From assembly GCA_018287875.1 (NCBI GenBank), contig JAGVVL010000013.1, positions 4,216,001 to 4,280,000 on the forward strand: a stretch of DNA of 64,000 bases. The letters are read 5' to 3'. A program made the translations under genes and the position numbers. Below the pieces are notes generated by a model. The model saw nothing but the letters and a program-made list of their open reading frames with translations, was not told where the DNA came from and searched no databases. This DNA is from Nigrospora sphaerica (lineage: Eukaryota; Ascomycota; Sordariomycetes; Amphisphaeriales; Apiosporaceae). Below are positions 15,169 through 61,531 of the stretch, in pieces (positions within the stretch are counted from its first letter, which is position 1; the number at the start of each line of letters is the position of its first letter).

Positions 15169-16914
15169 CTGCCCCATATCTTAATTAACAGCTCCCCATC
15201 TCAAAAACCTCTACCTATAAGGCCTCAACCTCTATTCTCAGTTACGCTAGATGCGACCAGTATCTTGTGACGTGGAAACCGACTGCAACTTGCGAGCAGG
15301 TCCGCTGGTGCCGCCAGCGCTGTGGTCGATACAACGGCGTCCGCCTGAGCCTGCTTACGTAGCCGGTCGTCCTCCCTTACGATTATGCCATCCGCGGTAA
15401 CCGCCCCGTGTTGCCGCCGGGTTGGGCTGTAGCCCCACGAGGACGCGGCTGGCGGCCGCATCGACGTTAATTTCGACGTTCACTTCTTACAGTGCTAGTG
15501 GAGCCAGCATTCGTCATCCCTCATCACCCGCTTCGGCTTCTTCGGAGCGCGGTGGCTCGGTTAGTGAATACTCGAGACTGTTCTGCCGGTGGTTCCGGTA
15601 CTTTTGATCGTCCCCCGCCAGCCATGGGCTTTCCGGTTTTGGTATCCACATGGCGGTGTAGCCGTGTTGGACTTGGGCCAAGACTCGACCAGCTAGACGC
15701 ATGAGATGAGCCTCAGCCAACTTTATCATATTGCCGGGTGCGCCTAGTCTGACTAGATTGGATTAGACTAACGTTCTCCAGTACCAATTTTCTCATCGTG
15801 TGGGGCGCAATGGAAAATAGCTTCCCGCTCACTAGGCGACATGGATTCGGCATCTTCCGGCGATGCTAAGGCTCACGATGTAGACCCCCAGCCTACTAGC
15901 TGAAAGTTTATTACCCTCAGCCGTTGGTGAGAGCAACGGTATCCTAGTTAAACGCTCTTCATAACACGGGAAGGCTGAAGTCTATTATGATTACAACATC
16001 TACACCGTCCTACTAAAATACGCGGTGGAGTATGCGTAGTCTTACTTCACCACGATCACAATCGCCATCGCGCACTTTTATCGCCGCAGCTGAGGCCCTA
16101 AGGTTAGATAATTTGATTTTAGATAACTACAAATGCCCAATAAACGAGGTGACGGCTGGCAAAGATCATCCTGCAACACTTATTGACAAGTTTTTGCGAT
16201 TTTAGGCTCATGATCGTTTACCGCCGCAGCCGGTGGCCGTCGGACAGGATCAGAATAACTGGGGATGTAGTATCCACTGGCAGGGACAAAGGCTACGGCG
16301 TGTGCTGCTAGCACCATGGAACTTAGACGACAGAGGCAAGGTACGACCGCGTAGAGATGGCATGATGGTTGGGCCCTGTCGGCATCTGGTTCTCCACGCT
16401 CTACCCCGGGCCAAAGCACGGCGAGTCTAACCTGTACTTGCATCCCCAATGCTGAATGGCTTATGGAATGGCGCTATCAATTCAAGCCCTGCTCAAGGTG
16501 GCCAGATAGCGAATAGCGATGAAAGCACGTGCTGCCGCCCATTCCTTCTTGCAGGCGTGACCTAGCCGACGCGCTGCAAACCGCCCCTTTCCGTCGGTTT
16601 TGCCTCGATTCCCAGGGCCATTTTCAGCCTGCTAAGTGGAGTCACCCTTACTGCTGAGCCCTCGGGCGTGCGACATGAACACGCTAAGCCGAATGCCAGC
16701 CCCTAGCCAGGTCGTATTTCAGCTTCTGAATAGCAACGGCGCGCACCTGCGGCCATTCCGGGCCTGGAAGGCCCGAGGCCCCCGAGGCATGCGCGCGCCC
16801 GTGTATAAAATGTTAGTGTCATGCAGCCAGCACATATGGCCAGGTCTCCAGTGACTTAGGCTCGGCGGACGCTCCCAAGGTTTGCCGCATTCACCCTTTC
16901 TTCATTCATTTACT
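15169..16914. other. Intergenic stretch upstream of the subtilase gene
   Basis: Base composition returns to normal at about 15.2 kb. Several short overlapping frames exist on both strands but none has a start, length or motif that supports a gene. Near the right end a TATAAA (about 16802-16807) lies roughly 110 bp before the subtilase start codon and a pyrimidine-rich leader (TTTCTTCATTCATTT) precedes it, consistent with a core promoter. Confidence 0.5.
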
Positions 16915-43725: not shown

Positions 43726-44471
43726 TCAAAGGCGTATATGAAGCAGAGTTCCCTGCCAAAATCTGCCATTCCCACGCTCCATATTAAAATCGCAAATAGT
43801 GGTGAATCCCTGTCTCTCATAATAACTAGCAGGCTTGTGAGCGGTTTCTCGAATATAAATAGGTCGGACAAAACTTACTCAATTAGCTTTCTTCCGTTGC
43901 CCGCCCAGCCGTCCACGTACACAGCACTGTAGCCTTTGTCCCTGTAATATTCCACCACTTCATGCAGAAGTGCGGATCCTGCTCCCTTGTGGTACCTTCC
44001 AGTGCGATGATCCGCTACCATAACTTCCACATAAGCATAGTTGATGGTATTTTCGAAGTGGCCTGCCTGTAGGCTTGGTGGACAATGGGAGGTAATGTAG
44101 TCTGGAACCCAGTTCTCATGAACGCACGCCGCCGCGACTGACAGCCAGGTCTTGCCGTCTGCACAGACACGCATTTGGACGTTAGTCTCCTTCAATTCGT
44201 CCATACCTGTACCGTCAATTTCGACCTCCACGATGAAAACTCGGACTTTTTCACCGACTCCCGTTCTTTCATAAGATTGGGACTGTTTGATCGACTTTTC
44301 TGTCTCTTCCAGAAACCCATCCTTCTTGGAGAATGGAACATCACCCCACATTTCGCCACCTCCTATCGAACTCAGGAAGGGCAACGTGGAGTCGAAGGCG
44401 GCGACGAGGAACTCTGTGTCACTCGACAGCGTGCCAGCGTTTCGCAAATTGTATTGGGGCATCTTCAGCAT
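43726..44471 (-). CDS. GNAT-family N-acetyltransferase
   Basis: Two exons: 44471-43879 and 43825-43726, with a 53-bp intron (43878-43826; GTAAGT donor, CTGCTAG acceptor), 230 residues. Without splicing the frame stops at once after KLIE; splicing restores YYERQGFTTI and FWQGTLLHI, a typical GNAT ending, so the intron is well supported. Motif A is YVEVMVADHRTGRYHKGAGSALL, with the acetyl-CoA pyrophosphate loop K-G-A-G-S; a helix and DKGYSAVYVDGWAGN follow. Such enzymes transfer acetyl from acetyl-CoA to an amine. Substrate unknown. It is on the same strand as, and 660 bp downstream of, the first RiPP precursor, so N-acetylation of a peptide product is possible but unproven. Confidence 0.85.
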
Positions 44472-45134
44472 ATTCGCGTTGCGCTGTTATTTTTGGCGAA
44501 AGAGCAAAAGCTTGAAGAAAGTTGAGAAGGCGCAAAGTGATGATTATGCGGGGCAATTATTTTTAAAAAGACCTGAAGAGCGTTGAAGTATGGATGAGTA
44601 ATTGTTTGAAGAAGAAAGTCTCAAATTGACTGTCTGGGAAAGAGTCGAGTATATATATACATCTTGCTGAGTCAGCTTTTGGATAGGATCGATTGCTGAC
44701 TTACGATAGCCAGAATGGGCCCACAGGACTAGTCTCTAAAATATCTGGTTTTCGATGCAATGGCTGGTCCATATGCAATGTAAAAAAAGATATCCTATGA
44801 TAGCTAGACTTGCGTCTTGGCTACATTTGCATACACATGCACCACTCATTATTGCTCTAGATAAGACGTCACGAAGGGCATGGGCCCAGACCCACTATTT
44901 GCTTAACCAAGAGGCTAAACTTAATGGAACAAAACAAGCGAATGAAAGATTGTGCATGCATCATGCAGTAGCTGTACTGACTTTTGTCCAACAAAGTACT
45001 TAAGTTGCTCCTATGCTACAGCTCCACGGCGGTAGACCAAATACCACCATAAAACTCAATTTGATGGACTCGCAAAGAGACAGATGCTATATCTTAACCA
45101 TACATCAGCAAAATCAAGCAGCATAGTTCAGTAA
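44472..45134. other. Intergenic stretch between GNAT gene and precursor 1
   Basis: A TATATATATAC run at about 44650-44660 lies about 180 bp upstream of the GNAT start and may be its TATA region. One 82-codon plus frame (44755-45003) has no motif and is probably chance. Confidence 0.4.
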
Positions 45135-45583
45135 TTATTTGGCGACGGCAGCGGGCTTGTTGTAGGCCAGGTCGGCGTCCAGCTCAGCGCGGGCGACGGC
45201 AGCGGGCTTGTTGTAGGCCAGGTCGGCGTCCAGCTCAGCGCGGGCGACGGCAGCGGGCTTGTTGTAGGCCAGGTCGGCGTCCAGCTCAGCGCGGGCGACG
45301 GCAGCGGGCTTGTTGTAGGCCAGGTCGGCGTCCAGCTCAGCGCGGGCGACGGCAGCGGGCTTGTTGTAGGCCAGGTCGGCGTCCAGCTCAGCGCGGGCGA
45401 CGGCAGCGGGCTTGTTGTAGGCCAGGTCGGCGTCCGAAGCAACTTTACGACCTAGCAAGAGTTAGATACAGGCGCAAGCAAACTCTCTCGCCACAAAGTA
45501 GTAATGCTTCTCTTACCTGTTATAAAACGAGCATTGGCGATAGCCAAGAAGCTCGAAACCAAAATTATATCATGGAACTTCAT
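45135..45583 (-). CDS. Secreted repeat precursor peptide 1 (UstA-like RiPP precursor candidate)
   Basis: Two exons, 45583-45517 and 45451-45135, with a 65-bp intron (GTAAGA donor, CTAACTC branch point, TTGCTAG acceptor), 127 residues. Exon 1 supplies a signal peptide ([18 protein letters not shown]). After GRKVAS come five exact copies of [17 protein letters not shown] and a sixth ending AAVAK. Each unit has one Tyr and no Cys. The layout (signal peptide, short intron, identical short repeats) matches dikaritin and Kex2-processed repeat precursors. Unusually, units are not separated by Lys-Arg or Arg-Arg; only Arg-Ala occurs in each, and one RK near the start. Two UstYa-like genes lie nearby, one divergently transcribed. 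It could instead be a non-RiPP secreted repeat protein. Confidence 0.8.
45141..45435. repeat. Perfect 51-bp tandem repeat array in precursor 1
   Basis: Five complete 51-bp units plus a partial sixth, identical base for base by eye. GC-rich compared with flanks. Both strands are open through the array, which is why an antisense frame (45442-45128) appears. Confidence 0.95.
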
Positions 45584-46773
45584 GTCGGCGACTTTGGCAA
45601 CTGCAATGATGCGTAGCAAAATGACTGGTGAGCGGGATCGTAATGTTTGAAACTTGTAGGTTTACAGAGAGTTGAGTTATGATGGTTCAATAGAACGTAT
45701 GTCAAACAGTCTGATTATTATATATGTTTTCTCTGCTTGCTCATATACTCCCTGCAACCGTCTTCATGCATTTTCTTTACCTAAGTTTTGAATCTCATCA
45801 CTCTTGTCCCAACGCTTTCTTAGTGTCGCAGTAATTCTCGGTTGAGAATTTAGCCAACCGAACTGCACAGCATAAGTAACGGTGGATGCACTTCTGCTTG
45901 CTGAGGAACTAGTTCAAGTGATCTATACGACATTGGCTTGCGACGCACCTCGCTTGGTAATGCGCTTACACTTATTATTGATTCTTGGCAACGTACCTCA
46001 GGTATTGCTCCTTCCACATTGAATACTTGGCTCTGCTCCATCCTATTATTGATTCTTGGTAACGTACTTCATTTATTCCTCCTTCCACATTGAATGCTTG
46101 GCGCATCGTATGCTTGTACAGCCATACCCAGTATTTTCAGCTGCAAAGAACTACATTTAGGCTGTCACCCCTGTTCCGATGTTCCCCATAGGCCCCTTCT
46201 TCCCCTCTCCGGACCCATGGACATCAACATCCGGCTCATTATAATTTGGTTTCAATTGTGGGACTCTAATGGATCCGCTTTGGCTAACCCCCTCTGCAAA
46301 TGCATCATGTGTTTGATGAAAAGCCATGGGTCTTTCCGTATCAGGCCCAAAACGCGCTTGAAGTGACATGTGATGTATTACTTGACATCGAAGTGCCCTG
46401 CAATATCCACTCAGGTGTCATCATGAGCCATACAGACCTGAACAGTAAGCAACAACCCCCTAGTAAGTTTCATTTACTATCTCACCATTGGCCAAGGTTG
46501 GTGTTGCTTCTGCGGCTATACGGTATCGTCCAAGAGCCTGCATAAGCGTGCCCGTGAAAATTTTCGAAGAAATACTTCCAATCAAGAGAGGCTTGGCCCA
46601 ACTTAGTAGTAGGATAATGTAATTAAGACCCTACGTGCTCTGATATCACATATCTGGATTTGTATTCCTTAACTGCGCCCCCAAGAATTCGAGTGGTTCA
46701 TATTCTCTACTTCAAACTCCATATCATTATTCCTCATATTACTGGAATCGCTTTATACGCCCCGAGAAAAACC
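45584..46773. other. Divergent intergenic region between precursor 1 and UstYa-like gene 1
   Basis: About 1.2 kb separates two genes transcribed outwards, so it may hold shared control sites. It contains a tandem duplication at 45973-46102 (ATTATTGATTCTTGG...CTTCCACATTGAAT, units about 71 and 59 bp). Short frames at 46.1-46.55 kb show no motif. Confidence 0.5.
45973..46102. repeat. Two-copy tandem duplication upstream of UstYa-like gene 1
   Basis: 45973-46043 and 46044-46102 share TATTATTGATTCTTGG, AACGTAC and CTCCTTCCACATTGAAT with several substitutions and a deletion. Lies in the divergent promoter region. Confidence 0.75.
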
Positions 46774-47809
46774 ATGTTGGCTGAACATGAGAGCAAAACG
46801 ATTGAATCGGCTGCTCATAGCGACGAATCAAGCGATGGTTGTTACAGCGAAGAGGCGACATTGATGCTAGGACTTCTCAAGAAGAAGCCCAAAAAGTCCT
46901 CCATTTTGCTGATATCAATATCAGCTTTGGCTCTGGTCACTCTGTATTCAGCAGTCCTGGTCCAGGTAACCTGGCATATCTCAAAGGGAGGCCGCATGCA
47001 GGGCACCAGATTCATGAAATGTTGGTCATACCAAACACTCCCGAGGGCTTTTATCTAACCATACTTGTAGCACTCGCCAATGACTTCATACAATACGAAC
47101 CGCGTGTTTTTCACCAGTTCGAGCGGCCATATCAAAATGTCACGTATTTCACTACGCCAGATGCGGAAGTGGACGGAAATTGGCATAACATCTTCGAACG
47201 TATGTTCATGCCAGATCCTTTGATGAACTCGGGTCTGTGATCTAACCCATACTGTACTTTGAAGATCAGAACATTCGAATCCCGAAGAACGTCATGCAAG
47301 AAATCGGTCGAGTGGATGAGGGTATCGAACTTCCTGGCGGTGATTTCTTTGGGTCCATCATGGTATTCCACCACTTGCATTGCCTGGTATGCTTAACCTT
47401 TAGTGATCTATCAAAAATATAAAAACTAATCTATGAAAGAAAAATCTGTTCCATGCGCTTCACCCCGAATATTACAACCTCACAAAATTGACAAGCCACG
47501 AAAAAGACATGTTCGCTGAACACAACGGTAGGAGATCTGGCAAAATATTAGTTCTTTGGAGGTCCCTATATTCACTGACAGGAATTTACAGACCATTGTC
47601 TTCATATGCTTCGTGAAGCAGTTATGTGTCAAGCTGACACCACCTTATTGACAATGAAATGGAATTCTACTGGCCTTCGACCTATAGGAAACTTGACCAG
47701 TCCTCACGAATGTGTCAACTGGGATAGGCTTATGGAATGGGTTATTCCCAATTCCTTCGATGCCCTAGCTGATGGCGTTCTGGTGCACCCGACACTTGGT
47801 ATGGACTAA
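46774..47809 (+). CDS. UstYa-like (DUF3328) membrane oxidase, gene 1
   Basis: ATG at 46774, acidic N-terminus, then one transmembrane helix (SSILLISISALALVTLYSAVL). Later exons give FIQYEPRVFHQFERPY and PDAEVDGNWHNIF, then (47265-47386) IRIPKNVMQEIG...MVFHHLHCL with the HHLHC motif, (47440-47527) HPEYYNLTKL, and (47592-47809) DHCLHMLREAVMCQADTT, the second His-Cys motif. Introns at 47200-47264, 47387-47439 and 47528-47591 are clear and in phase. The first intron, after 46965 (CAG then GTAACC), is unresolved: the best acceptor (CTAACCATACTTGTAG, ending 47070) is one base out of phase, while weaker acceptors at 47009 or 47045 keep phase. UstYa proteins oxidatively cyclise RiPP peptides in fungi. 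Confidence 0.85.
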
Positions 47810-49520
47810 TATATCTCGAGTTGGTATTAGCTCCAGCACGAAGTATTCTACTAACCAAATGCCAGGTCCTGTGTTCCGTAATGGACAATTGGTTCAAAGT
47901 TCTTAGCCATGGTTATTCTTGGGAAGATTAGATGGTGTGTTGTTTGGGCTGTGATGGGTAATACCTGCATAGAGGACGGGCAAGACACCAATCAGTCCAC
48001 CTTCAAATGTCGCTATCTCCCAGCCACTAAAGCCAAAAAAAAAAATTTGCAGGGTGCCAGCTCTCCAGTTCGCGTCCCATCACATATCTGATTCATTAGG
48101 CTGGACTGGGTTTGCCAATGTCACCATCGTCGCATGTTATCGTCGCGGGCCGCGGGCACTGGGTAGCCTGACGCGACGCACCTCAACACCTCGTCTTGCT
48201 GCGGAACTCTTACATTCCCTGCAGGTGCTATCGTATGGAATGAGCCTTGAAACCACCACGAACGGAGGAAAGATCTAACCTATCTAGGATGAACAGGCCT
48301 TGTAGCGTAGGACTAGACGTGAGTTCAAGTCTCACCGAGTGTGGTAGTTATGATGGGGCCCAGCCTCGGCACCAATGAAGCGAGCTCTGCTTGCCGGTGA
48401 TTCAGACCACCAAGGTTGCCGGACGAGGCGAGTCAGGGAACTGCAGGAGGCCCCCCCTTGTATGTTGGGATGATACCAGTAACCTCAAGGATTGGGCCCT
48501 TGGTCTTGCGAATCACCAACGCGTCAGAATTTCGCTTCACATGATTCAGGAGTTCAGAGGGCACGAGTGGTGTGATCCGATAATCAAGGCGCAGGAGATA
48601 CCTGGGTGTGCCAAGACTGAGGTTATCATGGCGCAGCTACTCAGTCTGGGCGACAAGGATGAGCTAGCTGATGAGCAAGACGAGCCACGTTGGCATTTTG
48701 GCGCCCTGCTACTGGCAGCGATCAAGCCTGGGCCGTCTATTTCCCCACACGAAGCGCCTTTCTCCTGCTAGGAAGGCATGCGCTCGCGTCAAGCGGCGCA
48801 CCGGACGTCCCAATTGGACAGGCCGAGTGGACGGACCAGAGGAGCGACAGCCAGGAGCCACAGTCGGACGGACATCGCTGTTCCAACGGGCATGCATGCG
48901 CCCCTTGTCTGCCATGTACGGTATAGTAGCATCTCGGGTACGACGTCGGCCGACCCGAGGGGGAGCCTCAGAGCCGACCTTGGGCTATGAAAAGGTGGAG
49001 GGGTCTTAGCTGGGAGAGGCGGAGGGACGGCTGCCCTCTGTACGGGAGGAGCGGGAGGAGCGAAAGGGCGGTAGCTTAGTGTCATGTTTGCAATCCAAGC
49101 CGCACGGCTCCTCTGCCCCTGCCCAATCGTCTGTCTCGGTCCAACCGAGCGTCTTGCAGGCAGTGAGTAACCTGTCGATGCAATTGTGCCTGATTCGCCC
49201 GCCCGGTGGTCTCTGCGACCCTTTACACTGGCGACCCTCGTTTCCCTCACACCGCACTGTCCTTGCCGCCACATTAATCCTTAGCAGCATCGTTCAGTGC
49301 CCCACGTCGGGAGAGGAAGAGCCGACTGACATGGCCGGGCCCTTCTATGGCGAGGCTACTTCGCTCTTCCAACGGCTGTATGGCCGCGCCCGTTCTTACG
49401 CTAGCTAGCCAGTGGAGATCCGCGGGACGGCGGCTAGTACAGCCGCTGCTTTGCAGGGCGCTTGTTGGTTCGGTCGTCCTAGCAATAGGGATCCTTGCTG
49501 GCAAGACCCGCTCAATCCAC
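47810..49520. other. Intergenic stretch, turning GC-rich to the right
   Basis: No supported gene. A 127-codon plus frame at 48391-48771 (MPVIQTTKVAGRGESGN...WHFGALLLAAIKPG) has no recognised domain. A small hairpin GTGAGTTCAAGTCTCAC at about 48319-48335 resembles a tRNA T-arm, but the other arms are absent. GC-rich composition from about 48.1 to 51.3 kb differs from the cluster genes on either side and may be an insertion. Confidence 0.45.
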
Positions 49521-49967
49521 CGCTTGTGAGCGCTGGCAGGCAAAGCGAATGCAACCATGTCTGTCTACTTTGGTTGCCGCGGAGCTTTGCAGGACGCCAT
49601 GGCCCGTTACGGCAGCTAGCCTGGGCTTTTCTGTGGAGCCTGTTTTATCCCTGTTTTATTTCCTGTTATATTCCCTGTCCTTCGGTTAGAATACCAAACT
49701 GTCGGGACGCGCCCCCTCCTCTTATTGGTCTTTCGCTCAACTAACAAACCGCTTGTGAGCGCTGTCAGGTGGAGTGAATGCAACCATGTCTACTTTGGTT
49801 GTCGTGGAGCTTTGCAGGACGCCATGGCCCGTTATGGCAGCTAACCTAGACTTTTATGTGGAGCCTGTTTTGCTCCTTGTTTTATTGCCTGTCCTTCGGT
49901 TAGAATACCAAACTGTCGGGATGCGCCTCCTCCTCTCATTGGTCCTTCACTCAACTAAAAAACCGCC
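49521..49967. repeat. Tandem duplication of a roughly 229-bp unit
   Basis: CGCTTGTGAGCGCT...GAATGCAACCATGTCT...GTCCTTCGGTTAGAATACC...CTCAACTAA at 49521-49749 is repeated at 49750-49967 with substitutions and small deletions (roughly 85-90 per cent alike by eye). Confidence 0.85.
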
Positions 49968-51334
49968 CTCTGTGTATTGCCCTCACCGAGGAAGTCGGCC
50001 GTACGAATGGGAACAGAAGCCAGGGTCCACTAGCTTATCACCAGACGCTCGGAGCTCTAAGAGGTAATTCGTAGCGAATACCTATGGGACTCCACAGTTG
50101 GTAGGCGAGGCACATGCTTGACTGTCGGCCCTCTTCCGCGCCGGATCGAAACGGGCAGATACCGGCGCGCTAGTACTGCCTACTTCGCTAGCTTGTACGG
50201 AATGTTGGGCTTGCCTAAGGCCCCCCCCGCCGGGGAAACGAGTACAATATGCGGAGCGCCAGCATTCCCATGCCCTGCCGCTACGCCTTCCTCCTGGCCT
50301 GGTAGGGCATGTCGAAGGTCAAGCACACCCACGACGCGACCCATGATTCCTGGCTCGTGTCTTCGTCTAGGATGCTGAGCGCCAGGACCTTTTGCCAGGG
50401 AAGGCTTGTCGCGACGGCCCCATGGAGCGGATCTCCAGACGTGTTAAGCGCTTCCGTGGAGGACTCCAACCAGTTGCATCGGGTTACGCGACGCTGTCAC
50501 CAGAGGGCTCTTGCCGCGCTCTTGGCATTGCATGACCGACATCCAGGTTCGTGTTCAAAAGCGTCGAAAGAGCGACCAAAAACATTCTTGGCTATCTCTG
50601 ACCAGTGGGATCAGCTGTGTTCGAGATCCTATTGGCCGGGTGGTATGCGTTCATCACACAACTATATGCAAGCACAACGATCAGTACGTAGGCTTGGGTT
50701 AGACAGAGACTCGTGTGGTTGAGGTTTGGTGTCGGCATGGGTTCGCACCTCGACGGGGAAGACAAGGAGGGCGTGGCAGGTGTGTATGCCCTTGTGGGGA
50801 GGTTTGTCGTCCTCCGGGTTGATGTAGGATCCCAACCTAACGAATACCGAACATTTTCGCAGTGGCTCTGGTGTCTGCGCGGGTTTCAGTTGGAAGGTGT
50901 GGACGTCGACTGGTACGGTTAGAGAGACATGAGCCGGCGTCGTTCAAGGCGAAGCGCTCCGAGCCCCTGGGCAGAGGCAACGACGAAGAGCCAACGAAGG
51001 AATACATAGGCATCCAGGCCACTCAGGTCATCCTTCGCCTACGTACACATTCATTTGTCGCCCTAGTGATGCCAGGTTCCACAAACCAACAACATCTCTA
51101 AAGGTCCTCCGTGCGCATAGCGCTCGCTTTCACGCTCGCCGCACCACCGTCATGAACCCACATCAGCCCTAATGACCGTTGGTTCGTATGTTCGCACTCT
51201 ACGTCGCGGGCACGGAAACAGGACAGTAGCGCGTCCGCTCCTTTCCCATCTTACCCACGCAACCCCGTCTCGCGTCGCTCGCCAGCTCAAGTCCAGAGCA
51301 CCTCCCACACCCCACGAAGCACCAACCTTCCACC
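49968..51334. other. GC-rich stretch without a supported gene
   Basis: Short overlapping frames on both strands with no domain, signal or splice evidence. Its role between the two UstYa-like genes is unclear. Confidence 0.45.
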
Positions 51335-51965
51335 ATAGTTCTTTTCGGTATCTAATTCCCTAGAACAGTTGGATCCATTTGCTGCTGGTTCCTTCCGTTT
51401 TGGGTATCACTATCACCCCGCACGTACTGTACGGCGGCCCCGTAGAGACGACAACACGACAGGTCCCTATGGAGCAGGTGCTATTGTAAGTCTGTATTTA
51501 TCCTATCGCGGTTGTTATATTCGGCAAAAGGCAGTATTGAATGCATCCTAACACCCGATAATACGCTATAGTGGTATGATTGGTGGAATGGAACATAGGT
51601 GAGGGGATACAATATGCGATTTCAGTAACTAAGCAAGGATCTGCACGCGCCCCGCCTTGCATGAGCTCTCTAAGTAGCTACGCACACCGAGCCGGTAAGT
51701 CCGCCAATTAGGCCTGCAGCTCTCGCATCGGTACCGTAAACTTGGTTCTTTACATCCAGGGCCCAAGGACGATCAGTCGATACTGATAAGACTACCGACC
51801 TTATTCGGGAAGGTCCCATTCATGCACAAGCCTGCTTTTTTATCCTATCGGTTCTAGACCGGCAATAACTCGGTCTGTCGTGCGTTCAGCAACCCTCGGT
51901 GTAGGTTCTGCATAATCGTGATGCACAAACTCTCAGCATCACCTGATGTTGAGAGGTTCTTGTTC
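51335..51965 (+). repeat. Left arm of an inverted repeat flanking UstYa-like gene 2 and the GST
   Basis: About 630 bp that recurs in reverse complement at 55195-55845 (shared landmarks include CAGTTGGATCCATT, TATCACCCCGCA, GGCCTAATTGGCGGAC in inverse, TATCGGTTCTAGACCGGCA and CTCGGTGTAGGTTCTGCATAATCGTG). By eye the match is near 85-90 per cent with small indels. At its inner end is a near-perfect 26-bp hairpin (51930-51955, CTCTCAGCATCA, CC, TGATGTTGAGAG). Confidence 0.9.
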
Positions 51966-52085
51966 TAACTGCGTTTTCCCGCCTTCCCACATACCTTTTC
52001 CCCTTTCTCTTCCTGCTTTGATTCTTTTCAGAGCGAGAAAGAGACAGAAACATCAACCAAGTCTGCTACCACCAGCGATATTGCT

Positions 52086-53172
52086 ATGTCCCAAAAGCAA
52101 AGCTTTGTAAAGCTTCAAAGTGATGACCCAGATGATGAAGGTATCACTTTGCCTTCGGAGACGAGGCAGTGGAGCTTGCAAGTCATCTGGCCTCTGTTGA
52201 TTTTGTCTGCATTCGAGGCTATAATAGTCGCCATTTTGGCAACTTTACTACTCACGAGACGTCTATCAGACAGAGAATGCGCTGCCCACCTTTCGGTGTA
52301 CTGTGAGTTACAGAAATTGACTGAAAAGGCTCTGGGCTCTGGTATGTCACTGACATTCAACTAGCGCCTTTACTGGATGATCCCAGCCTTATCCAGTATG
52401 ATGCATTCGATCTCCCCACCTACTTCAACCAGCCCTCACCCTACCGTGGGCCGCCAACCCCCGAAAGAGAGGCTCTATGGGAGAAACTCTGGCACCGTAC
52501 GTTACACTTCGTTTCAATTCATCTGACTCCGGTCCGTTGATTGCGGCTAAATCTATCATAGAGGGCACCATCAATGTGCCCTTGGAGAAACTAGGTGCAC
52601 TGAACAAAACGCTTAAAGGGAAAGAATATAAGCGTACACCAATCGAAGCAGGTGGTGGATATGCAGCACAGGTCGAGGTTCTACACCAGTTACACTGTGT
52701 GGTATGTGGCATCTGACTAAGTTCGCCTATATGAAACTATCTACGGAGCTAACAAGACATATACAGGGTCTCCTAAGGTCAGCATCCTACAGAGAAGAAT
52801 ATGAGAAACAAGGAATACCATTTCCAGGTTCTCAGCATGGGCTAGATCCCGCAATAGCTCGAATGCACATGGGTTCGTTAACAAAACACTTGCTCAAAAT
52901 GATTTTAACTGATATCAGATTCTACATGCAAGATCACTGCATTGAGGTGTTGAGATTGAATATCATGTGTCAAGGCGACGTCACCCCAATTCTAATCGAG
53001 ATGGATCCTAAGGTGAAGCTCCTTCGCTAATCTCGCGATATTCATGGCTACGTACGTTGCTCACATGACGCAGGCACCATTTGGTGAGAGGGCAGACTTC
53101 ACATCATATCACAAATGCCGCAACTTCTGGGATATTCATGCGTGGGTCAAGGATCATGTTGCTATTCCATGA
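52086..53172 (+). CDS. UstYa-like (DUF3328) membrane oxidase, gene 2
   Basis: Five exons: 52086-52302, 52365-52496, 52562-52701, 52767-53012, 53074-53172; introns 61-65 bp, all in phase; 277 residues. Residues about 33-59 form a transmembrane helix (VIWPLLILSAFEAIIVAILA). Exon 2 gives SPLLDDPSLIQYDAF...YRGPPTPEREALWEKLW, very typical of the family. Exon 3 ends with VEVLHQLHCV (motif HQLHC). Exon 4 carries ASYREEYEKQGIPF and DHCIEVLRLNIMCQGDVTP (second motif); exon 5 ends ADFTSYHKCRNFWDIHAW. All expected His and Cys residues are present, so it looks functional. A 40-residue spacer before DHCIE is longer than usual; no intron that keeps the frame was found there. In ustiloxin-type pathways these proteins form the macrocycle on Tyr-containing cores. 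Confidence 0.93.
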
Positions 53173-54021
53173 CCATCCCTGATATACATATGGACTTGGT
53201 GACTTCCACAGCAAAGAAGAAAATATTAAATAGGCGAATGATTTAGGCGATCATCAGTTTGATTATCCTATAGTTACCATCTGTCCGCTTCATTATAACC
53301 AGTAAGGGTTAATGATTAAGGAGCGTTACAGGTTGGGACCTGGGAGATAGACTCGGGCGCACCTGGCCCGAGCGTCCCACGAACCCCTGACATGAGGTTC
53401 ACGACTAGGTCTCTTTATTCGGATGCTGTGCTATTAGCTAAGATCCGGGATGAGGAATCGAGCAACGAACCGAACGCTCCGACCCGAACGTTCCGGCCGT
53501 TCCGGCCGCCTCGCAAGGACTTCGCGAGACGCTGAGCCCGACCTCCTGAGGTCGATTTCTCTTCCTCTGTATCTAGAAAATAAACAGCATTTGACCACCT
53601 TCGATGGTGCTTCAAGGCTCAACCTCTCACAAGGAGCTGCAGTTCAATGTCGCACGGAACTATTCCAGCTGACTTTTTGACCCACTACGCCTGCATAAGC
53701 CCTCTGACACAGGCAGGAAACCGGTTTTAGAATAATTGACCCTACTGGCCACCGTACCAGTACTTCATGTACAGTTAAACCTTAGTTTGGCTCCCATGCA
53801 TGCACCCCGCTTAATTAGGCTTGTCTTAGCGCAGACCGACCGCGTGACCCGGCTTGAGAAGTAGCCGACAGATTCCCTTACACTCGCAAAGGCCCTGTTC
53901 TGCGGCCTCGAATCATACATAAGGCTGAACACACCGCTCTATGAATACCTTTATTTGGCGGTCTCTGCTCAAACGTTCTTTTTGCTTCTCATTAAGCGCT
54001 CATAAAATCAAGATCTGAGGC
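53173..54021. other. Intergenic region between UstYa-like gene 2 and GST
   Basis: About 850 bp, no gene. At 53454-53515 there is a dense set of CGAACG, CGTTCGG and GTTCCGGCC words forming short inverted repeats, more GC-rich than the surroundings; it might be a repeat remnant or regulatory patch. No factor assigned. Confidence 0.4.
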
Positions 54022-54948
54022 ATGGCTTTCACGTTTCATGAGTCAACTCCTCCTCGTTTGATGGAAGTGAAGGTAAGCTCATATGCCTTATTAAGGCGTA
54101 GCCTACCTCTAAATGCTAACAACCTCATAGGCATTGCATCTACTGACGGAGAATACCCCAAATGGCAAGAAAGTGCAAATCCTACTGGAGGAGCTCCATG
54201 CAACCTACGGTACATCTTGGAAAACCCACTTAGTTGATCTCGAGAGTGAAGAGCAGAAGAAAACTTGGTTCTTGAAGCTTAATCCTAACGGTATATTTGG
54301 CATGATATAGGTCTCTTTTTCCGATGTACTAATCACGGAATTGGCAGGAAGAATACCGGTCCTAATCGACACAACGAAAAGCACGCCGATTTCTGTTATG
54401 GAAAGCTCGGCAATATTAATCTACCTACAAGAGACATACGACCCGAAGAATCTTTTTGGCTTCGAAGACCCTATACAGAGAAGCCAAGTTATTCAATGGC
54501 TATTTTTCTGGCATGCAGCATCCCCTGTACAGGGCCAAACACGACATTTTGTCAGAGATGCGAGGGAGACTATGCCCTGTAGGTTCACAATAAATTGGTT
54601 TAGATGTGAAAGGATAAATGTTCACATGGTACAGATGTCACTCAGAGGTTCCAAAGCGAAATGTTGAGAATCTATTCAGTTCTAGAGGATCATTTCAGCG
54701 GAAAGCACGGAGGAGGGCCGCGTCATTACCTTGCAGGCAACGGGCTCGGAAGATATAGCATTGCGGACATCGGGACGTGGCCGCATGCACGAGCATACCG
54801 CTCGATAGGGTTCTCAGAAGAGGATGTGAACCCCTTCCCTCATCTTCTACAGTGGATCCAACGGATCGCAGAACGAAAGGCGGTCAAAAGTGGGACCAGC
54901 GGGAAATACGACAGCGAGGAGAGCCCTCAATTCGTGATAAAGGAATAG
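54022..54948 (+). CDS. Glutathione S-transferase-like protein
   Basis: Four exons: 54022-54072, 54131-54290, 54348-54578, 54635-54948; introns of 56-58 bp with GTAAG/GTATAT/GTAGGT donors and AG acceptors; 251 residues. The thioredoxin-like N-terminal domain shows TPNGKKVQILLEEL, WFLKLNPNGRIPVLID and the glutathione-binding ESSAILIYLQETYDP. The helical C-terminal domain has QWLFFWHAAS, QGQTRHFV, QRFQSEMLRIYSVLEDHF, then HYLAGNGLGRYSIADIGTWPHARAY. This is the fungal Ure2p/YfcG-like class. It probably conjugates or reduces with glutathione. Position between UstYa-like gene 2 and precursor 2, inside the inverted repeats and on the same strand, suggests a pathway or self-protection role. Product identity is firm, pathway role inferred. 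Confidence 0.9.
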
Positions 54949-55194
54949 CGGGACGGCGGGAATTTCCCCTGCTGTGTACCTGATAGAAATAGGAATACAA
55001 AGATGCTGCGCAGCTGGCTTTGGAATATTGGTCCCGAAACAGCATACTATTTTGACATAGACTTGGATATCAAAGTTTAGGCCACTGACTAATAAAAGCC
55101 TATCACTAATACCTTCTTGCGATAAAAAAAGAGGTGAAGGTGCTAGAATCTGAGCGATAGAATCTGAGCGCGAGAAACGGGGTCAAAACATGCG

Positions 55195-55845
55195 TCCGGA
55201 ACACAAACCTCTCAACATCAGGTGATGCTGGGAGTTTGTGCATCACGATTATGCAGAACCTACACCGAGGGTTGCTGAACGCACGACAGACCGAGTTATT
55301 GCCGGTCTAGAACCGATAGGATAAAAAAGCAGGCTTGTGCATGAATGGGACCTTCCCGAATAAGGTCGGTAGTCTTATCAGTATCGACTGATCGTCCTTG
55401 GGCCCTGGATGTAAAGAACTAAGTTTACGGTACCGATGCGAGAGCTGCAGGCCTAATTGGCGGACTTACCGGCTCGGTGTGCGTAGCTAATTGGGGTACT
55501 GTATGCAAGGCGAAGCCCGTGCAGATCCCTGCCTTGGTTGCTAAAATCGTACGTTATATCCCCTCGCCAGTGTTCCATCACACTAATCATACCCCTATAG
55601 AGTATTGCCCCGTATGAAGTTGCATACAATACAACGTTCTGCAGAATACGAGATGCCGAATACGACGACCGCGATAGGGTAAAGCCGACCTACAATAGCA
55701 CCTGCTTCATAAGGACCGGTCATGTTGTCGTGTCTACGGGGCCACTGTACAGTAAGTGCGGGGTGATGGTGATATCCAAACCGGAAGAAACCAGCAGTGA
55801 ATGGATCCAACTGTCCTAGGGAAGTAGATAGCGAAGAAGACCCTG
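55195..55845 (-). repeat. Right arm of the inverted repeat
   Basis: Reverse complement of 51335-51965 over about 600 bp, including the hairpin (55209-55234). A minus-strand frame inside it (55921-55595, with FFRFGYHHHPALTVQWPRR) corresponds to a shorter frame in the left arm (51369-51551, FRFGYHYHPARTVRRPRR), but the two diverge and no family is recognised. The outer end lies about 150 bp before precursor 2. Confidence 0.9.
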
Positions 55846-55993
55846 AGTAGTTTGTGTAAGTATTAATATCTGTTGGTGCCTTCGCGTTTAACAGGCTTGT
55901 CAACCCACGTTTAGCCCTCATCTCAACTCTTTAAATATATTAACCACGGCTGTTTTGAGCTTTTTCTACAACCTTCAGATCACAGCTTTCAAA
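55846..55993 (+). promoter_or_regulatory. Putative promoter of precursor 2
   Basis: The only unique DNA between the inverted-repeat arm and the precursor ATG. Contains TTTAAATATATTAACC at about 55931-55946, 48-63 bp upstream of the ATG at 55994, a TATA-like region, and pyrimidine-rich TTTTTCTACAACC. Regulatory elements may extend into the repeat arm. Confidence 0.4.
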
Positions 55994-56494
55994 ATGCATA
56001 TGAGATTTATCCTTCCAACCCTCACGGCAGTTTCCATTGCCATCGGGGCTCCTGCAGGTTAGTAAAAGCCTCGGATGTCGTAGTCCTAATCAGGAACAAT
56101 AAGAAGCTAACCGATCACAGAAATCAAGCGGGACGAGTATGGGACGACCATGAAATGCGATATTGCCTATGCAGACTTCGCTAAGGTTTCTGGTAAACGA
56201 GACGAGTACGGCATCACGATGAAGTGCGACTCCGCATACGCCGACTTCAAGCAGAAGCGGGACGAGTACGGCATCACGATGAAGTGCGACTCCGCGTACG
56301 CCGACTTCACACAGAAGCGGGACGAATACGGCATCACAATGAAGTGCGACTCCGCATACGCCGACTTCAAGCAGAAGCGGGACGAGTACGGCATCACGAT
56401 GAAATGCGACTCCGCGTACGCCGACTTCACACAGAAGCGGGACGAATACGGCATCACTATGAAATGCGATTCCGCTTATGCTGATTTCAACTGA
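55994..56494 (+). CDS. Secreted Kex2-processed RiPP precursor 2 (UstA/dikaritin-like)
   Basis: Two exons, 55994-56057 and 56121-56494, with a 63-bp intron (GTTAGT donor, GCTAACC branch point, CACAG acceptor), 145 residues. Exon 1 is a signal peptide (MHMRFILPTLTAVSIAIGAP). Then EIKR and six core-containing units, the first DEYGTTMKCDIAYADFAKVSGKR, the rest DEYGITMKCDSAYADF followed by KQKR or TQKR alternately; the last ends in Asn. Every unit starts right after Lys-Arg, so Kex2 cleavage would free six nearly equal 16-20-mers, each with two Tyr and one Cys. This is the hallmark layout of ustiloxin-, asperipin- and phomopsin-type precursors. Neighbouring UstYa-like and GST genes support a RiPP pathway. 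The core does not match any product I know. Confidence 0.93.
56213..56494. repeat. 60-bp tandem repeats in precursor 2 with a 120-bp higher-order period
   Basis: Units 2-5 alternate in both protein (KQKR, TQKR, KQKR, TQKR) and silent bases (TCCGCATAC, TCCGCGTAC, TCCGCATAC, TCCGCGTAC), so a 120-bp dimer was duplicated. Units 1 and 6 at the edges are the most diverged. Confidence 0.9.
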
Positions 56495-56819: not shown

Positions 56820-59800
56820 GCCATACCGAGATCGGGCTCAGCGCGCCCGCTTCTTAGCTGATGAGTTGATTCGCCAGCTGGAACATGTCCAGCCTACGCG
56901 AGCGGAGTAGCCATCTCGCGATAATTCCTGCTTTTCCTGGGGTGTCGAGCATCCTGTCCGTGTCTATCGGTCCTCCTAGAGCTTGGACGAGATGCTCTCG
57001 TCTTTCTCTTTCCCGTGGGCAGAAAACGAGGATATGCCGGACGGTCTCCCTGCCCTGACCACAGACGCACTAGGGGCTGTCGAAGCCCGGGACCCTACGC
57101 TTAAAAAGGAAGTCTCGCAGCCCAATCTTGCCAGTCCTCGCTTGGACGAGGATGGAGCTCTCGGCTTTATGGAGTCCCTTATGGAGCTTGAGGACGTGTT
57201 TGTCTGGCGGCATCTTAGTTGCTATCAGGGTTCGTGCTGTTCGATTTTGCTGCGCTTGTTGCTATCTTTGAAGCCAGTCTCTCTCCTCAGCCTTATATAC
57301 TGAGTCTCCAGCTAGCCATTTGTCTAGCCACCTCTTACGATCGGGAGCGTCGGGGCCTTTCGGTCTGCGCCAGCGAGTCGGTCTTGTTAGGATCCATCTA
57401 GCTGCGCTTTCGCATCTCGCTTGGATGAGTGATGCGATACGCGGCTGTTAGAGCCTCTCTTCCAATGCCGCCACCCTTCTGTTGAGCCACGTGTCTAAGG
57501 GGGACACGTAAGCTTCCGTTTCTAGTACTGCGGTAGCCGTGGCTTTGAAAGCTCCTGTGACCTTTCGGAGGCACTCTGTCTGGACGTCGTTAAGTGCCTT
57601 GGCTCTATTTTTCGAGATCTGGCGGTGCCACTCTGAAGCTCCATAGCCTATTGCAGACCGTACGACGGCTGTATAGACTTGGCGGGCTCGCTAGAGAGAC
57701 GCGCCCTATGTCGAGCCGGCTATCCGATCTAGAGCATAGACCTGCGTTGCCATCTTCTTCGATATCGACTGGATGTGGACGTCCCAGCGGAGACGTCTAT
57801 CCACCTGGATGCCAAGGACGCGGCAGGAGTCTTCTGGTTCGATTTCGTGGCCTTCTAAGGCTATCTTCGTGTCCGGACCTTTCCGTCTTCGAGAGAAGTG
57901 GACTAGGTGATATTTCTGGACTGCAAAGGTCATGCCGTGGCTGACTGCCCATTCCTTACAGATCCTGTGAGCGGCTTCCAGCCGCTCGCAGGTCTGCTCG
58001 GGGTTTAAACCGAAGCCCACGAGGTTCGTGTCGTCTACGAAGGCTATAGTAGCTTTCCCTGGTACGGCGCGGAGAGCCTTATAAAGGCCGGCTGTATAGA
58101 GGCAGAAGAGGATAGGCGACAGAGGTGAGCCCTGCGGGACGCCTGCCGGGACTAGGATCTCGTCCGATTCTTAGCCGTCGAAGAATAGCGTCGTGGACCG
58201 GTTAAATAGGAAGCTTCGGATCCAGCTGATAGTCTATATAGGGACCCTTAGTGCTCGCAGGTTAGCGAGAAGCCTTCCATAGTCGACCGAGTCGAAAGCG
58301 CCCGAAATATTTAGCGATAGAAGGGTTGCTGCGCCTCTATATTTCCAGGCTGTGCGGACTAGGTCCGTTAGCAACCGCAAGGCCGTTTCTATGGAGCGGC
58401 CTTTCCAGTTGCCCATCTGTTCGTCCGGGAGCAGTCCGTTCTCTTTGGTAAAGCTAGCTAGCCGTTGCGTTAGTAGGCTCTCGATCGCTTTCCCTATGGT
58501 GTTAAGCAGCGCAATAGGTCTCCATCTGCCGGCTTGGTGATACTCGTTTGGCTGCTTTCCTGGCTTCCGGAGGATAACGGTGACTGCTTTCCGGAACGCT
58601 CTTGGATAGTATCCTATATGCCAGCACGCTTCCGCTAGGGAGGCCAAGGCCTGGAAGAGGGGCTTTCTTAGGCGTTTAAGGAATCCGTTCGGAAGCTGGT
58701 CTGGTCCAGGTGCCTTCCACTGGCCTGCCTTAGTAAGGACGTCTTGGACTTGTTCTGCTGTCACCTTGCTGTCCATATCGAGAGGCGCTGCGAGCCGGTT
58801 CGTTGTTCGGAAGCCGGTGTACGTAGCCTTAGGGAGGGGATAGAACCTCTCTCGGAAGGCCTCTGTTTTCTCCTTATGGGTCGTTGCCTCGCCACGCGGT
58901 GTGTAGAGTGTAGGGACTGCCGGGGGTAACGGCGGTGCTGCTCCTTCCGTTCTTGCCTATCTCGCGATATTCCAGACGCCAGCTGGCTGGCTAGACGCCT
59001 CGTGGAGCATATGTCTCCAGGACGCCGTCTTGGCTTCTCGGATTGCTTTCTTCTTTGAGAGAGTTGACTGCCGGAGGGCTCGCCAAGCTACGTCCGTCCT
59101 ATCGGAAAGCCATATCCGCTGGGCTCTTCGCTCCTTCTCTATAGCTTCTTCTGTCTCGCGGTTCCACCAGGCTTTGCCTCTCCCTTTAAAGTAGCGGAGG
59201 GGGGCAACTAGGTCGGCTATCCGAGTTAATTCCTTAGTCAACGTTTCAGTGTAGCTATCGATTTCTTCTGGTGTCTCGAGTCGCCCTGGCTGTGGTAGGT
59301 ATGCCGCTTCTGCCTTCGCCTGGTCATAGTCAGCTGTTTTCCAGCTGCGTTGTGGCCTGTCTTGGCGGTCTGTATGGGGTCCAGCCACGCGTATCACCTG
59401 CGGGAGGTGATCGGATCCAGCATATGGGGCGTACCCGTCGTAGGCAGTTCGGAGATCGTCCGTGGCCCACGCTAGGTCGATCGTGGAGTCCATGCACCCT
59501 CTTCGAGTCCATGTCGGTGTTCCAGGGGGTGTGATCAGCTGGAGTCTCCAGGATTCTGCTAGCTGGAGCAGCTTATCAGCTGCCCTATAGGGTCGGACGT
59601 TGTATCCTCCCCAGACGGGGTGGTGGACGTTGAAGTCTCCCACGAGGACTGTTCGTCTTAGCTGGGGTTCGGCATGGAGGGCTTCGATAGCGGGCAGGTC
59701 CGATCTGCTAGTGGACCCAGGGGGAGGCGAGTATATGCAGACGACTGTTATGGGACCGTCTGGTAGTTGGATTGTGATGTGACACCTATCTGGCTGCGCC

Positions 59801-60042
59801 TTGTATGTCCACTGCGCTGGGGTGTACTTCTTATTAATATAGATGCATGCCCTACCTCCCTCGGTTGCGTAGAGTAGGTAGTATAGAGAGGATCTCGGGC
59901 AGTAGGTGGTCGGTATATTTGGGTTTCGCTAGGGCTCTTAGATAGCCAGGACGTCGTACTCTTCGGAGATGGCATCAACTGCCGGGATCTGTGCTTTCTT
60001 GCTTTTCTGCGTGTTCCAGTGTAGGATCCTTAGCGCTGTCAT
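56820..60042 (-). pseudogene. LINE ORF2 (endonuclease, reverse transcriptase), several stops
   Basis: ATG at 60042-60040 sits in ATGA with the ORF1 stop. Order: endonuclease (MTALRILHWNTQKSKK; VGDFNVHHPVWGG; STIDLAWAT; GSDHLPQ), then RT (KAPGPDQLPNGFLKRL; WRPIALLNTIGKAIE; GAFDSVDYGRL; GVPQGSPLSPILF; catalytic FVDDTNLVG), then a C-terminal CVCGQGRETVRHILVFCP zinc motif near 57040. Stops occur for example in the endonuclease N-terminus (near 59940), after VWNIAR (58957), in the RT (about 58233) and after IAGST (57706). The catalytic motifs survive. Confidence 0.9.
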
Positions 60043-61397
60043 AGTCGAGCGTGGATGCTGTTTAGTGTTGACTCCGGTGTTTCGATGTCCATGTCGTCTA
60101 TCTCTTCGTGGGTTCTACTGCGGGCTCTGCCAGTGCTTCTAGTACGGCAGCTGGTCGCTCGACGCTTCCGCGGCTGAACTGTCTGCCAGTCTTCGGCTGT
60201 TGTCTTAGGGGGTTCTTGCAAGGGCAGTGCGAATCCCTTCGGTCTTGTGATATAAGCAGCCTTGGCAATCTGGACCTGCTCTTGGCGGACTGGGCACTCC
60301 TTAGACCACGCAGTGTGTGGTCCTCGGCATGCTGGACAGCAGTACCGGCTCTTATTCTCGGCTTCTGGGCATTCTTTATCATCATGCTTTGTTGAAGAGC
60401 AGAGCCCGCACCTGCGTGCGTGGCGGCAGACACGGGCGATATGTCCATAACGGTAACAGTGGTAGCATTGCTTAAGCTGTGCTCCTTCGGCGAAGGGCTC
60501 GCATGGATAGTAGCTATACTGCCAAATAAGGCCGTCTCGACATAGCTGTTCCGCTTGTTAAACCGTGGGTACTGCAATATATAGGGCCGTGACCTTCCCA
60601 GACGAGGTCTTAGTGTTGCGAGGTAGCTTGGCCTCTAGTACGTCGATAGGGCCGCCGGGCTGGTTCCGGAGTTGGACTCCTAGCTGCCCTTGGTTCGTCT
60701 CTATGGCCTCTTTGTTAATGCCATGGGCCACCACCAGGATCTTTCTCTTCTGGATGGAGGCACTCTCTCCGAAGGCCTCGGCGGTCCAGTTTAGGTCGGC
60801 TTCTAAGGCTTGTTTCTCCGCTGCTGTCTTGCATGTGATGGCGTAGTCTCCGCTAGGGAGCTTACGTGCTGCTACTGCTGCCTCTCTCCCTGCGGCGGTG
60901 TTAATCTTGCGAACGATCTCTGCGTAGGTGCGTCCTTCTGTCTCTGTAGCCTTAACGGTGATCTCTCGTTCCTGACGGGGAGGGAGCGCCTTAGCTATCT
61001 GAGGGGCTCTAAGTGAGGGAGCGGCGGTTATGGCGGTGGCAGCGGCAGCGTATGTCTTAGGAGCCTTAATGTGCTTGTGGATGGCCTGAAGCGTGTTCTC
61101 GATGGCATCGATGCGTCTCTCGATGCTAGTCTGGTTGTCTGGTTCCTTAGCTGCCGCCTCGAGGACCGGGATGGCGGCTTGTACGGCTGCGACTAAGGTG
61201 GCAACGTCGGAATCACCAGCTAAGAAGCGTCTAAGGCTGTTTACGGTGCTGCGAATGGCTTCTGGACTGCGTCCAGGTGTCGTGTTGCTGCTTGGCGATG
61301 GCGTACGCGAGTCTGGAGGCGAGGGCTCGGGTGGTGGGGCGGGACGTTGGGGGTTCCCGCCACCCGCGCTTTGCCTCGAGGGTGGTGGATCGACCAT
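60039..61397 (-). pseudogene. LINE ORF1 (Gag-like, zinc knuckles), one in-frame stop
   Basis: Starts at the ATG at 61397 with a Pro/Ser-rich N-terminus, then a helical region (ATLVAAVQAAIPVLEAAAKE), and RNA-binding segment to 60558, where TAA follows PTV. Beyond it the same frame resumes with AEQLCRDGLIWQYSYYPCEPF and three knuckles: CYHCYRYGHIARVC, CGLCSSTKHDDKEC and CPACRGPHTAWSKEC. It ends with a TGA at 60041-60039 that overlaps the ORF2 start. The stop GTTTAACAA could come from CAA by a CpA change. ORF1 proteins bind element RNA. Confidence 0.9.
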
Positions 61398-61531
61398 TTC
61401 TAGGGTAAATGGGGCCCTAGGAACAGTTTCCGGGCTATCCGGTGGGTTTCAGAGTCGTGGTTGTGAAGTTATCGCCGTGTGGGGTCGGTTTCGAGAAGTT
61501 TTTTTTTTTCTCACGTAACTGTACGGTATTA

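What the first reader, a model, noticed from the sequence alone, without database searches (positions are those of the whole stretch)
43726..56494. Candidate dikaritin-type RiPP cluster with two different repeat precursors
Two spliced, secreted repeat-peptide genes, two UstYa-like (DUF3328) genes with both His-Cys motifs, a GST and a GNAT acetyltransferase occur within 13 kb. Known ustiloxin, asperipin-2a and phomopsin clusters pair a repeat precursor with UstYa-type oxidases. Two structurally unrelated precursors (a Cys-free 17-mer unit without dibasic sites, and a Cys-containing 20-mer unit with Lys-Arg sites) beside two UstYa-like genes suggest either a two-product locus or two adjoining clusters. 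The core sequences match no product I know.
Basis: partly seen in the sequence, partly recalled or inferred. Interest (0 to 1): 0.93.

Follow-up and report, generated by a model that had tools for sequence, protein, structure and literature searches.

The report
Two neighbouring fungal peptide-making gene pairs
Near a chromosome end of an unnamed fungus, two unrelated repeat-peptide genes each sit beside their own peptide-modifying enzyme gene, and the two pairs appear to have different ancestries, so this looks like two small natural-product loci side by side rather than one.

Summary
GNAT, precursor 1, UstYa1, UstYa2, GST and precursor 2 give intact spliced models inside 43726-56494. Both oxidases match Pfam UstYa at about 1e-43 and carry both HxxHC motifs. 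Best reading: two adjoining single-oxidase dikaritin-type pairs. Pair A (precursor 1 + UstYa1): relatives of both lie in Colletotrichum; a similar divergent pair with DADLxY repeats lies on contig C1, although direct searches did not link the two precursors. Pair B (UstYa2 + precursor 2): relatives of both occur in Apiospora marii; its five exact cores differ only synonymously, 43 of 43 codon differences, and hold DEYGI, close to the EDYXI motif of ustiloxins and phomopsins. The missing dibasic sites of precursor 1 are less odd than they looked: other UstYa-linked arrays here mix KR with TR or ER. Degenerate repeats lie between the pairs; the telomere is 26 kb away. GST has a near-copy elsewhere, so its role is doubtful. 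Expression, linkage in relatives and products are untested.

The parts
43726..44471 (-). GNAT-like acetyltransferase gene, two exons (44471-43879, 43825-43726), 230 aa; membership of the locus uncertain
   Evidence: Model; PF00583 E 2.3e-4, over cut-off; paralogue, 49% identical, split at the same place, at C9:3239499-3240244
45135..45583 (-). Precursor 1: signal peptide, 65-bp intron, six copies of [13 protein letters not shown] in a 17-aa register, Arg-only junctions, last residue Lys; 127 aa
   Evidence: homologues in Colletotrichum asianum and C. chrysophilum; no second close copy in own genome
46774..47906 (+). UstYa1 oxidase gene, six exons, 277 aa, HHLHC and HNDHC; divergent from precursor 1 with 1.2 kb between
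   Evidence: Colletotrichum relatives 70-72% over nearly full length; tree
48000..51330 (.). Stretch between the two pairs, of which about 2.3 of 3.3 kb is degenerate repeat sequence, 70-82% like other places
   Evidence: 60 own-genome matches, itself included
51340..51965 (+). Left arm of an inverted repeat (inner tract 287 of 291 columns identical, outer 273 of 352)
   Evidence: three places in the genome
52086..53172 (+). UstYa2 oxidase gene, six exons, 257 aa, HQLHC and HMDHC
   Evidence: Apiospora marii 73.6%, Neoarthrinium moseri 86.9% over residues 59-257
54022..54948 (+). Glutathione S-transferase gene, four exons, 251 aa; probably a passenger of a duplicated block
   Evidence: paralogue of 89% DNA identity, open at the same exons by eye, beside the third repeat copy on C18
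55199..55840 (-). Right arm of the inverted repeat
55994..56494 (+). Precursor 2: signal peptide, 63-bp intron, six units after KR (core DEYGITMKCDSAYADF in units 2-6, DEYGTTMKCDIAYADF in unit 1); 145 aa
   Evidence: homologue with three units in Apiospora marii

Best explanation
The stretch holds two adjoining, separately descended dikaritin-type gene pairs, each a secreted repeat precursor plus one UstYa-family oxidase. Pair A is precursor 1 + UstYa1; pair B is UstYa2 + precursor 2. Shown: gene models, both HxxHC motifs, repeat arrays, purifying selection on the precursor 2 core, nearest relatives of each pair in different lineages, a similar pair A on contig C1. Inferred: each precursor enters the secretory pathway. 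Precursor 2 is cut by a Kex2-type protease after Lys-Arg; precursor 1 after the single Arg of AVAR|AE. Basic ends are trimmed. The oxidase then cross-links a core Tyr; in pair B most likely Tyr to the Ile two residues on, as in ustiloxins and phomopsins. For pair A the partner residue cannot be named. GNAT could acetylate a pair A peptide; GST is probably a passenger. By recall of its ITS the host is of the Apiosporaceae; if so, pair A was probably exchanged with Colletotrichum.
For: UstYa matches; motifs. UstYa1 groups with the 8 Colletotrichum rows at 100/100 (48); precursor 1 homologues in two Colletotrichum species. UstYa2 and precursor 2 relatives both in Apiospora marii, UstYa2 also in Neoarthrinium moseri. 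Second UstYa1-type gene on C1, with no UstYa2-type match at 1e-3 (101), and a divergent precursor of four DADLxY units with KR junctions; its unit resembles that of precursor 1 (46 of 20,000 shuffles as good). Multi-copy DADLxY beside 2 of 2 UstYa1-type genes and 0 of 12 other fetched UstYa neighbourhoods. Junctions: C1a 8 of 10 TR, 2 KR; C9 2 of 7 TR, 5 KR; C10 5 of 7 ER, 2 KR; the A. marii precursor has TR between units 1 and 2 (27). Kex2 tolerates other P2 residues and takes Ala at P4 (PMC8528282, passages). Terminal Lys in precursor 1, P0002, P0003 and the C1 model. 43 of 43 codon differences synonymous. Degenerate repeats between the pairs.
Against: No expression or product data. A genome search with precursor 1 did not list the C1 precursor at E 10, nor did the reverse search list precursor 1; their kinship rests on a short motif, position and a shuffle test chosen after seeing the match. 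Linkage in A. marii or Colletotrichum could not be checked; the A. marii precursor and oxidase records show different contig lengths (119,852 and 4,611,974), perhaps two strains. The argument for pair B rests on one species. Whether UstYa1 is nested in or sister to Colletotrichum is open (AU p 0.229). No supported fork joins UstYa2 with just its two nearest relatives. Protein searches scored only the 7,993 and 7,997 best candidates. The host's family is recalled, not computed. No tyrosinase, methyltransferase, peptidase or transporter gene was seen among the modelled genes; Pfam was run on selected frames only. By my grouping, 14 of about 25 UstYa neighbourhoods were examined, one of them only 3.3 kb long.
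Confidence: 0.7

Rival explanations
1. One two-product cluster: both precursors and both oxidases are co-regulated and share tailoring enzymes (GST, GNAT).
For: All lie within 13 kb; clusters with one, two or five UstYa-type genes are known (PMC7329392, section read). GNAT genes flank a UstY gene in lichen Clan R2 clusters (PMC12048977, sections read).
Against: Different nearest relatives for the two pairs; degenerate repeats between them; a similar pair A on C1 stands without pair B, and no match to GNAT exon 1 or GST was listed in that 10-kb stretch at E 1; GST belongs to a block also found on C18.
Confidence: 0.15
2. Precursor 1 is not a modified-peptide precursor but a secreted repeat protein or a source of linear peptides, next to UstYa1 by chance.
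For: No dibasic sites between units; the KEP survey requires KR, KK, RK or RR (PMC7329392, section read). No product known. Direct searches do not link it to the C1 precursor.
Against: Same divergent layout with a resembling repeat at the second UstYa1-type gene; both genes have Colletotrichum relatives; single-Arg junctions alternate with KR in other UstYa-linked arrays.
Confidence: 0.1
3. Both pairs are silent relics in a repeat-rich subtelomere.
For: 26-39 kb from a telomere, among repeats; the precursor 1 array is identical at DNA level, so it gives no internal sign of selection.
Against: All frames intact; the precursor 2 core is kept through synonymous-only change, and the last two cores of the A. 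marii homologue are identical to it.
Confidence: 0.1

Closest known systems
Ustiloxin and phomopsin clusters (dikaritins)
   Same: Secreted multi-copy precursor with KR junctions and UstYa oxidases; pair B core DEYGI resembles the EDYXI motif (PMC6339444, section read)
   Different: No tyrosinase, methyltransferase or peptidase gene seen among the modelled genes; one oxidase per pair; acidic order D-E rather than E-D; core holds Cys
Asperipin-2a cluster
   Same: Minimal cluster with one UstYa-type oxidase (PMC6514808, passages)
   Different: No reductase or transporter gene seen among the modelled genes; other core
Kex2-processed repeat proteins (KEPs) beside DUF3328 genes
   Same: Pair B fits; 1758 of 7878 KEPs have a DUF3328 neighbour (PMC7329392, section read)
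   Different: Precursor 1 fails the dibasic criterion
Lichen Clan R2 RiPP clusters
   Same: Single UstY homologue with GNAT acetyltransferases (PMC12048977, sections read)
   Different: No repeat precursor was found there (passages); only one GNAT gene here, and its role is unshown

Membership tests
UstYa family (PF11807) | Profile match over cut-off | tested here: met
   149.3 and 152.1 bits against cut-off 25, profile positions 5-217 and 6-220 of 220
UstYa family (PF11807) | Two HxxHC motifs | tested here: met
   UstYa1 from 161 and 194; UstYa2 from 158 and 197
Kex2-processed repeat protein: precursor 2 | At least 3 tandem repeats of 8 aa or more between KR, KK, RK or RR | tested here: met
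   Six units, each after KR
Kex2-processed repeat protein: precursor 1 | At least 3 tandem repeats of 8 aa or more between KR, KK, RK or RR | tested here: not met
   Junctions are AR; no dibasic pair between units
Kex2-processed repeat protein | Signal peptide | tested here: inconclusive
   Hydrophobic N-termini with plausible cleavage sites by eye and hydropathy; no SignalP
Dikaritin | Repeat precursor beside a UstYa-family oxidase gene | tested here: met
   Precursor 1 next to UstYa1 (1.2 kb); precursor 2 2.8 kb from UstYa2
Dikaritin | Peptide cyclised by the oxidase | not testable with these tools
   Needs mass spectrometry and gene removal
Dikaritin (five-gene definition, as told in PMC12048977, passages) | Tyrosinase, methyltransferase, transporter or peptidase genes | tested here: inconclusive
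   None among the modelled genes; Pfam was run on selected frames only
Ustiloxin/phomopsin subgroup: precursor 2 | EDYXI core motif | tested here: inconclusive
   DEYGI, acidic order swapped; an acidic-acidic-Tyr-x-Ile motif arises in 802 of 200,000 shuffled units, tested after the resemblance was seen

The most novel reading that the evidence does not exclude
UstYa1-type oxidases and DADLxY repeat precursors form a coherent peptide family in Sordariomycetes, spread partly by horizontal exchange between Colletotrichum and Apiosporaceae; some members have lost every dibasic site between units and are processed at single arginines, so surveys that require dibasic sites have missed them and their new cross-linked peptides. 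(Set at 0.30 after I added that direct searches, do not link the two precursors.)
Probability: 0.3. Interest if true: 0.62.

Novelty: new variant of a known kind. Interest (0 to 1): 0.45.

Why it matters
Few dikaritins have known products (a 2022 review counts five, PMC10512285, passages), and a large survey finds precursors by dibasic sites (PMC7329392, section read). A UstYa-linked precursor with Arg-only junctions, with a resembling KR-type precursor in the same genome, would mean that such surveys undercount, and offers a built-in comparison of which junctions the protease and which core residues the oxidase need. Two pairs of different ancestry side by side near a telomere would also be a case of cluster assembly in progress.

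Tried and rejected

A Fisher test of 2 of 2 against 0 of 9 gave 0.018. It was made after the pattern was seen and with a count of nine; recounted, held ten other neighbourhoods, and one search added two. C4 and C18 gave identical sums and are not independent.
Full report
What is there. The window is bases 4,216,001-4,280,000 of contig C5 of an unnamed 51.6-Mb assembly in 33 contigs. C5 (4,298,756 bases) ends in TTAGGG repeats, so the locus lies 26-39 kb from a telomere. Six genes give intact models within 43726-56494: GNAT, precursor 1, UstYa1, UstYa2, GST and precursor 2. All modelled introns are GT-AG, 50-67 bases. UstYa1 aligns with the C. camelliae protein over its full length (1-277 against 1-278), which supports its splice model.

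Oxidases. UstYa1 and UstYa2 match PF11807 at 1.9e-43 and 2.7e-44, carry both HxxHC motifs, and each has a hydrophobic stretch near the N-terminus (peaks from residues 43 and 37). They are 29% identical to each other. In an alignment of 36 of the 49 database hits the His-Cys of the second motif is invariant and the first motif is kept in at least 90%. The whole genome gives 52 exon-level matches to PF11807, so such genes are common here.

Precursor 2. Units 2-6 have the identical core DEYGITMKCDSAYADF; 43 of 43 pairwise codon differences are synonymous and all 8 variable columns are third positions. The one homologue found (7 candidates scored), from Apiospora marii, has three units and is 82% identical over its 85 residues; its last two cores are the same. 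The first unit here lacks the Ile (GTT in place of GIT) and has Ile where the others have Ser; the A. marii first unit shares both differences, and the junction after it is TR there. DEYGI resembles EDYXI, reported for ustiloxins and phomopsins (PMC6339444, section 10 read).

Precursor 1. A 51-bp unit repeated 5.8 times without a difference encodes a Cys-free peptide with one Tyr per unit. Homologues in Colletotrichum asianum and C. chrysophilum have three and two units. A third, weak hit (P0004, E 0.03) shares DADMAY. In all three named precursors the last unit ends with Lys where the others have Arg, as if each unit were meant to end in a basic residue that is then removed.

A second pair of the same kind. 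A search with an Apiospora kogelbergensis oxidase (P0023) found UstYa1 first and, among weaker places, a gene on C1 with segments of 35-53% identity. I fetched 10 kb around it. That gene is matched by UstYa1-type proteins (summed best 211.7 bits) and by none of the UstYa2 type at 1e-3; its full model was not completed. About 1 kb away and divergent lies a repeat gene whose model reads four units of the type AEEQDADLQYFPTKR, the last ending in Lys. Its unit resembles that of precursor 1 (46 of 20,000 shuffles as good). Against this: a whole-genome search with precursor 1 did not list it, and the reverse search did not list precursor 1, both up to E 10. Multi-copy DADLxY repeats occur beside 2 of 2 UstYa1-type genes and beside 0 of 12 other fetched UstYa neighbourhoods; one single match lies in L021. 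I take precursor 1 to be a relative of a KR-type precursor that lost its dibasic junctions.

Single-Arg junctions. In three other UstYa-linked arrays of this genome the junction varies between KR and other xR: C1a 8 of 10 TR, C9 2 of 7 TR, C10 5 of 7 ER. [quoted passage not shown] Ala at P2 is not among the residues it names, so a cut at AVAR is plausible, not shown.

Ancestry. UstYa1 falls with the 8 Colletotrichum rows at 100/100 in a tree of 28 of the 49 database hits plus the window; whether inside or beside them is open (AU p 0.229). The nearest rows to UstYa2 by path are Apiospora marii and Neoarthrinium moseri (12 of the 49 hits plus the window), but no starred fork joins just these. 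NCBI taxonomy puts Colletotrichum asianum in Glomerellales and the other two in Apiosporaceae, Amphisphaeriales. The ITS of the assembly looks like Apiosporaceae to me, by recall only; its second rDNA copy differs at 11 of 496 columns. If that is right, pair B is at home and pair A is the likely import, while the C1 gene, whose best summed matches are Microdochium, Tolypocladium and A. kogelbergensis, would be the native copy. Loss in other lineages is not excluded.

Surroundings. Of bases 48000-51330 about 2.3 kb is degenerate repeat with 60 matches, the place itself included. The block UstYa2-GST is flanked by an inverted repeat whose inner tract is 287 of 291 columns identical. A third copy lies on C18 beside a GST gene 89% identical at DNA level and open at the same exons by eye. 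GST is therefore probably part of a duplicated block. GNAT has a 49% paralogue on C9, about 2.4 Mb from the nearest listed C9 UstYa match, but GNAT genes flank a UstY gene in lichen Clan R2 clusters (PMC12048977, sections 14 and 21 read), so a role is possible.

Mechanism. Signal peptide, protease cuts at basic junctions, trimming, oxidative cross-link at Tyr by the neighbouring UstYa enzyme. The processing sites are read from the sequences and the known families; the trimming and the cross-link are inference.

Literature. Searches on UstYa and DUF3328, Apiospora or Arthrinium with RiPP or UstYa, ustiloxin and phomopsin oxidases, victorin, Colletotrichum with UstYa, RiPP or dikaritin, DUF3328 with subtelomeres and DUF3328 with Kex2 and Colletotrichum listed no title or abstract on this locus; most listed papers were not opened. 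A search for five core strings returned one unrelated paper. Genome papers on Apiospora malaysiana, A. arundinis and Neoarthrinium moseri report predicted RiPP clusters in general terms (passages). The library holds open-licence papers only, and supplements could not be read.

Verdict. Pair B is a new member of a known kind, pair A a new variant; the locus is best read as two adjoining pairs.

Noticed in passing
L022+L023 (C9:388001-408000), joined positions 17174-17674; L024+L025 (C10:3518001-3538000), joined positions 5195-5686: Two related repeat arrays (DNNVDAAATRAGWLY units) near UstYa genes, with KR, TR and ER junctions; likely paralogous peptide clusters.
   Followed up: partly
L030+L031 (C1:7486001-7506000), joined positions 12734-14098: A repeat gene with APHHKTK units and mostly LETR junctions about 3 kb from a UstYa gene.
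   Followed up: partly
window 51340-51965 and 55199-55840: Inverted repeat with a nearly identical inner tract flanking UstYa2 and GST; recombination between the arms could flip the 3.2-kb segment between them.
   Followed up: partly
window 16855-19749: A 965-aa frame with a subtilase domain (PF00082) and an Fn3-like domain, about 24 kb from the locus.
   Followed up: no
window 56900-61507: A LINE-like element with endonuclease and reverse transcriptase frames, 89% like a copy in L032.
   Followed up: no
P0009, Apiospora marii relative of UstYa2: The database protein seems to read through an intron just before the second HxxHC motif, in a frame that the window sequence also shows there.
   Followed up: no
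G000:C4 near 108 kb and C18 near 1,193 kb: C4 (110 kb) gives nearly the same UstYa matches and scores as part of C18, suggesting a duplicated or redundant contig.
   Followed up: no
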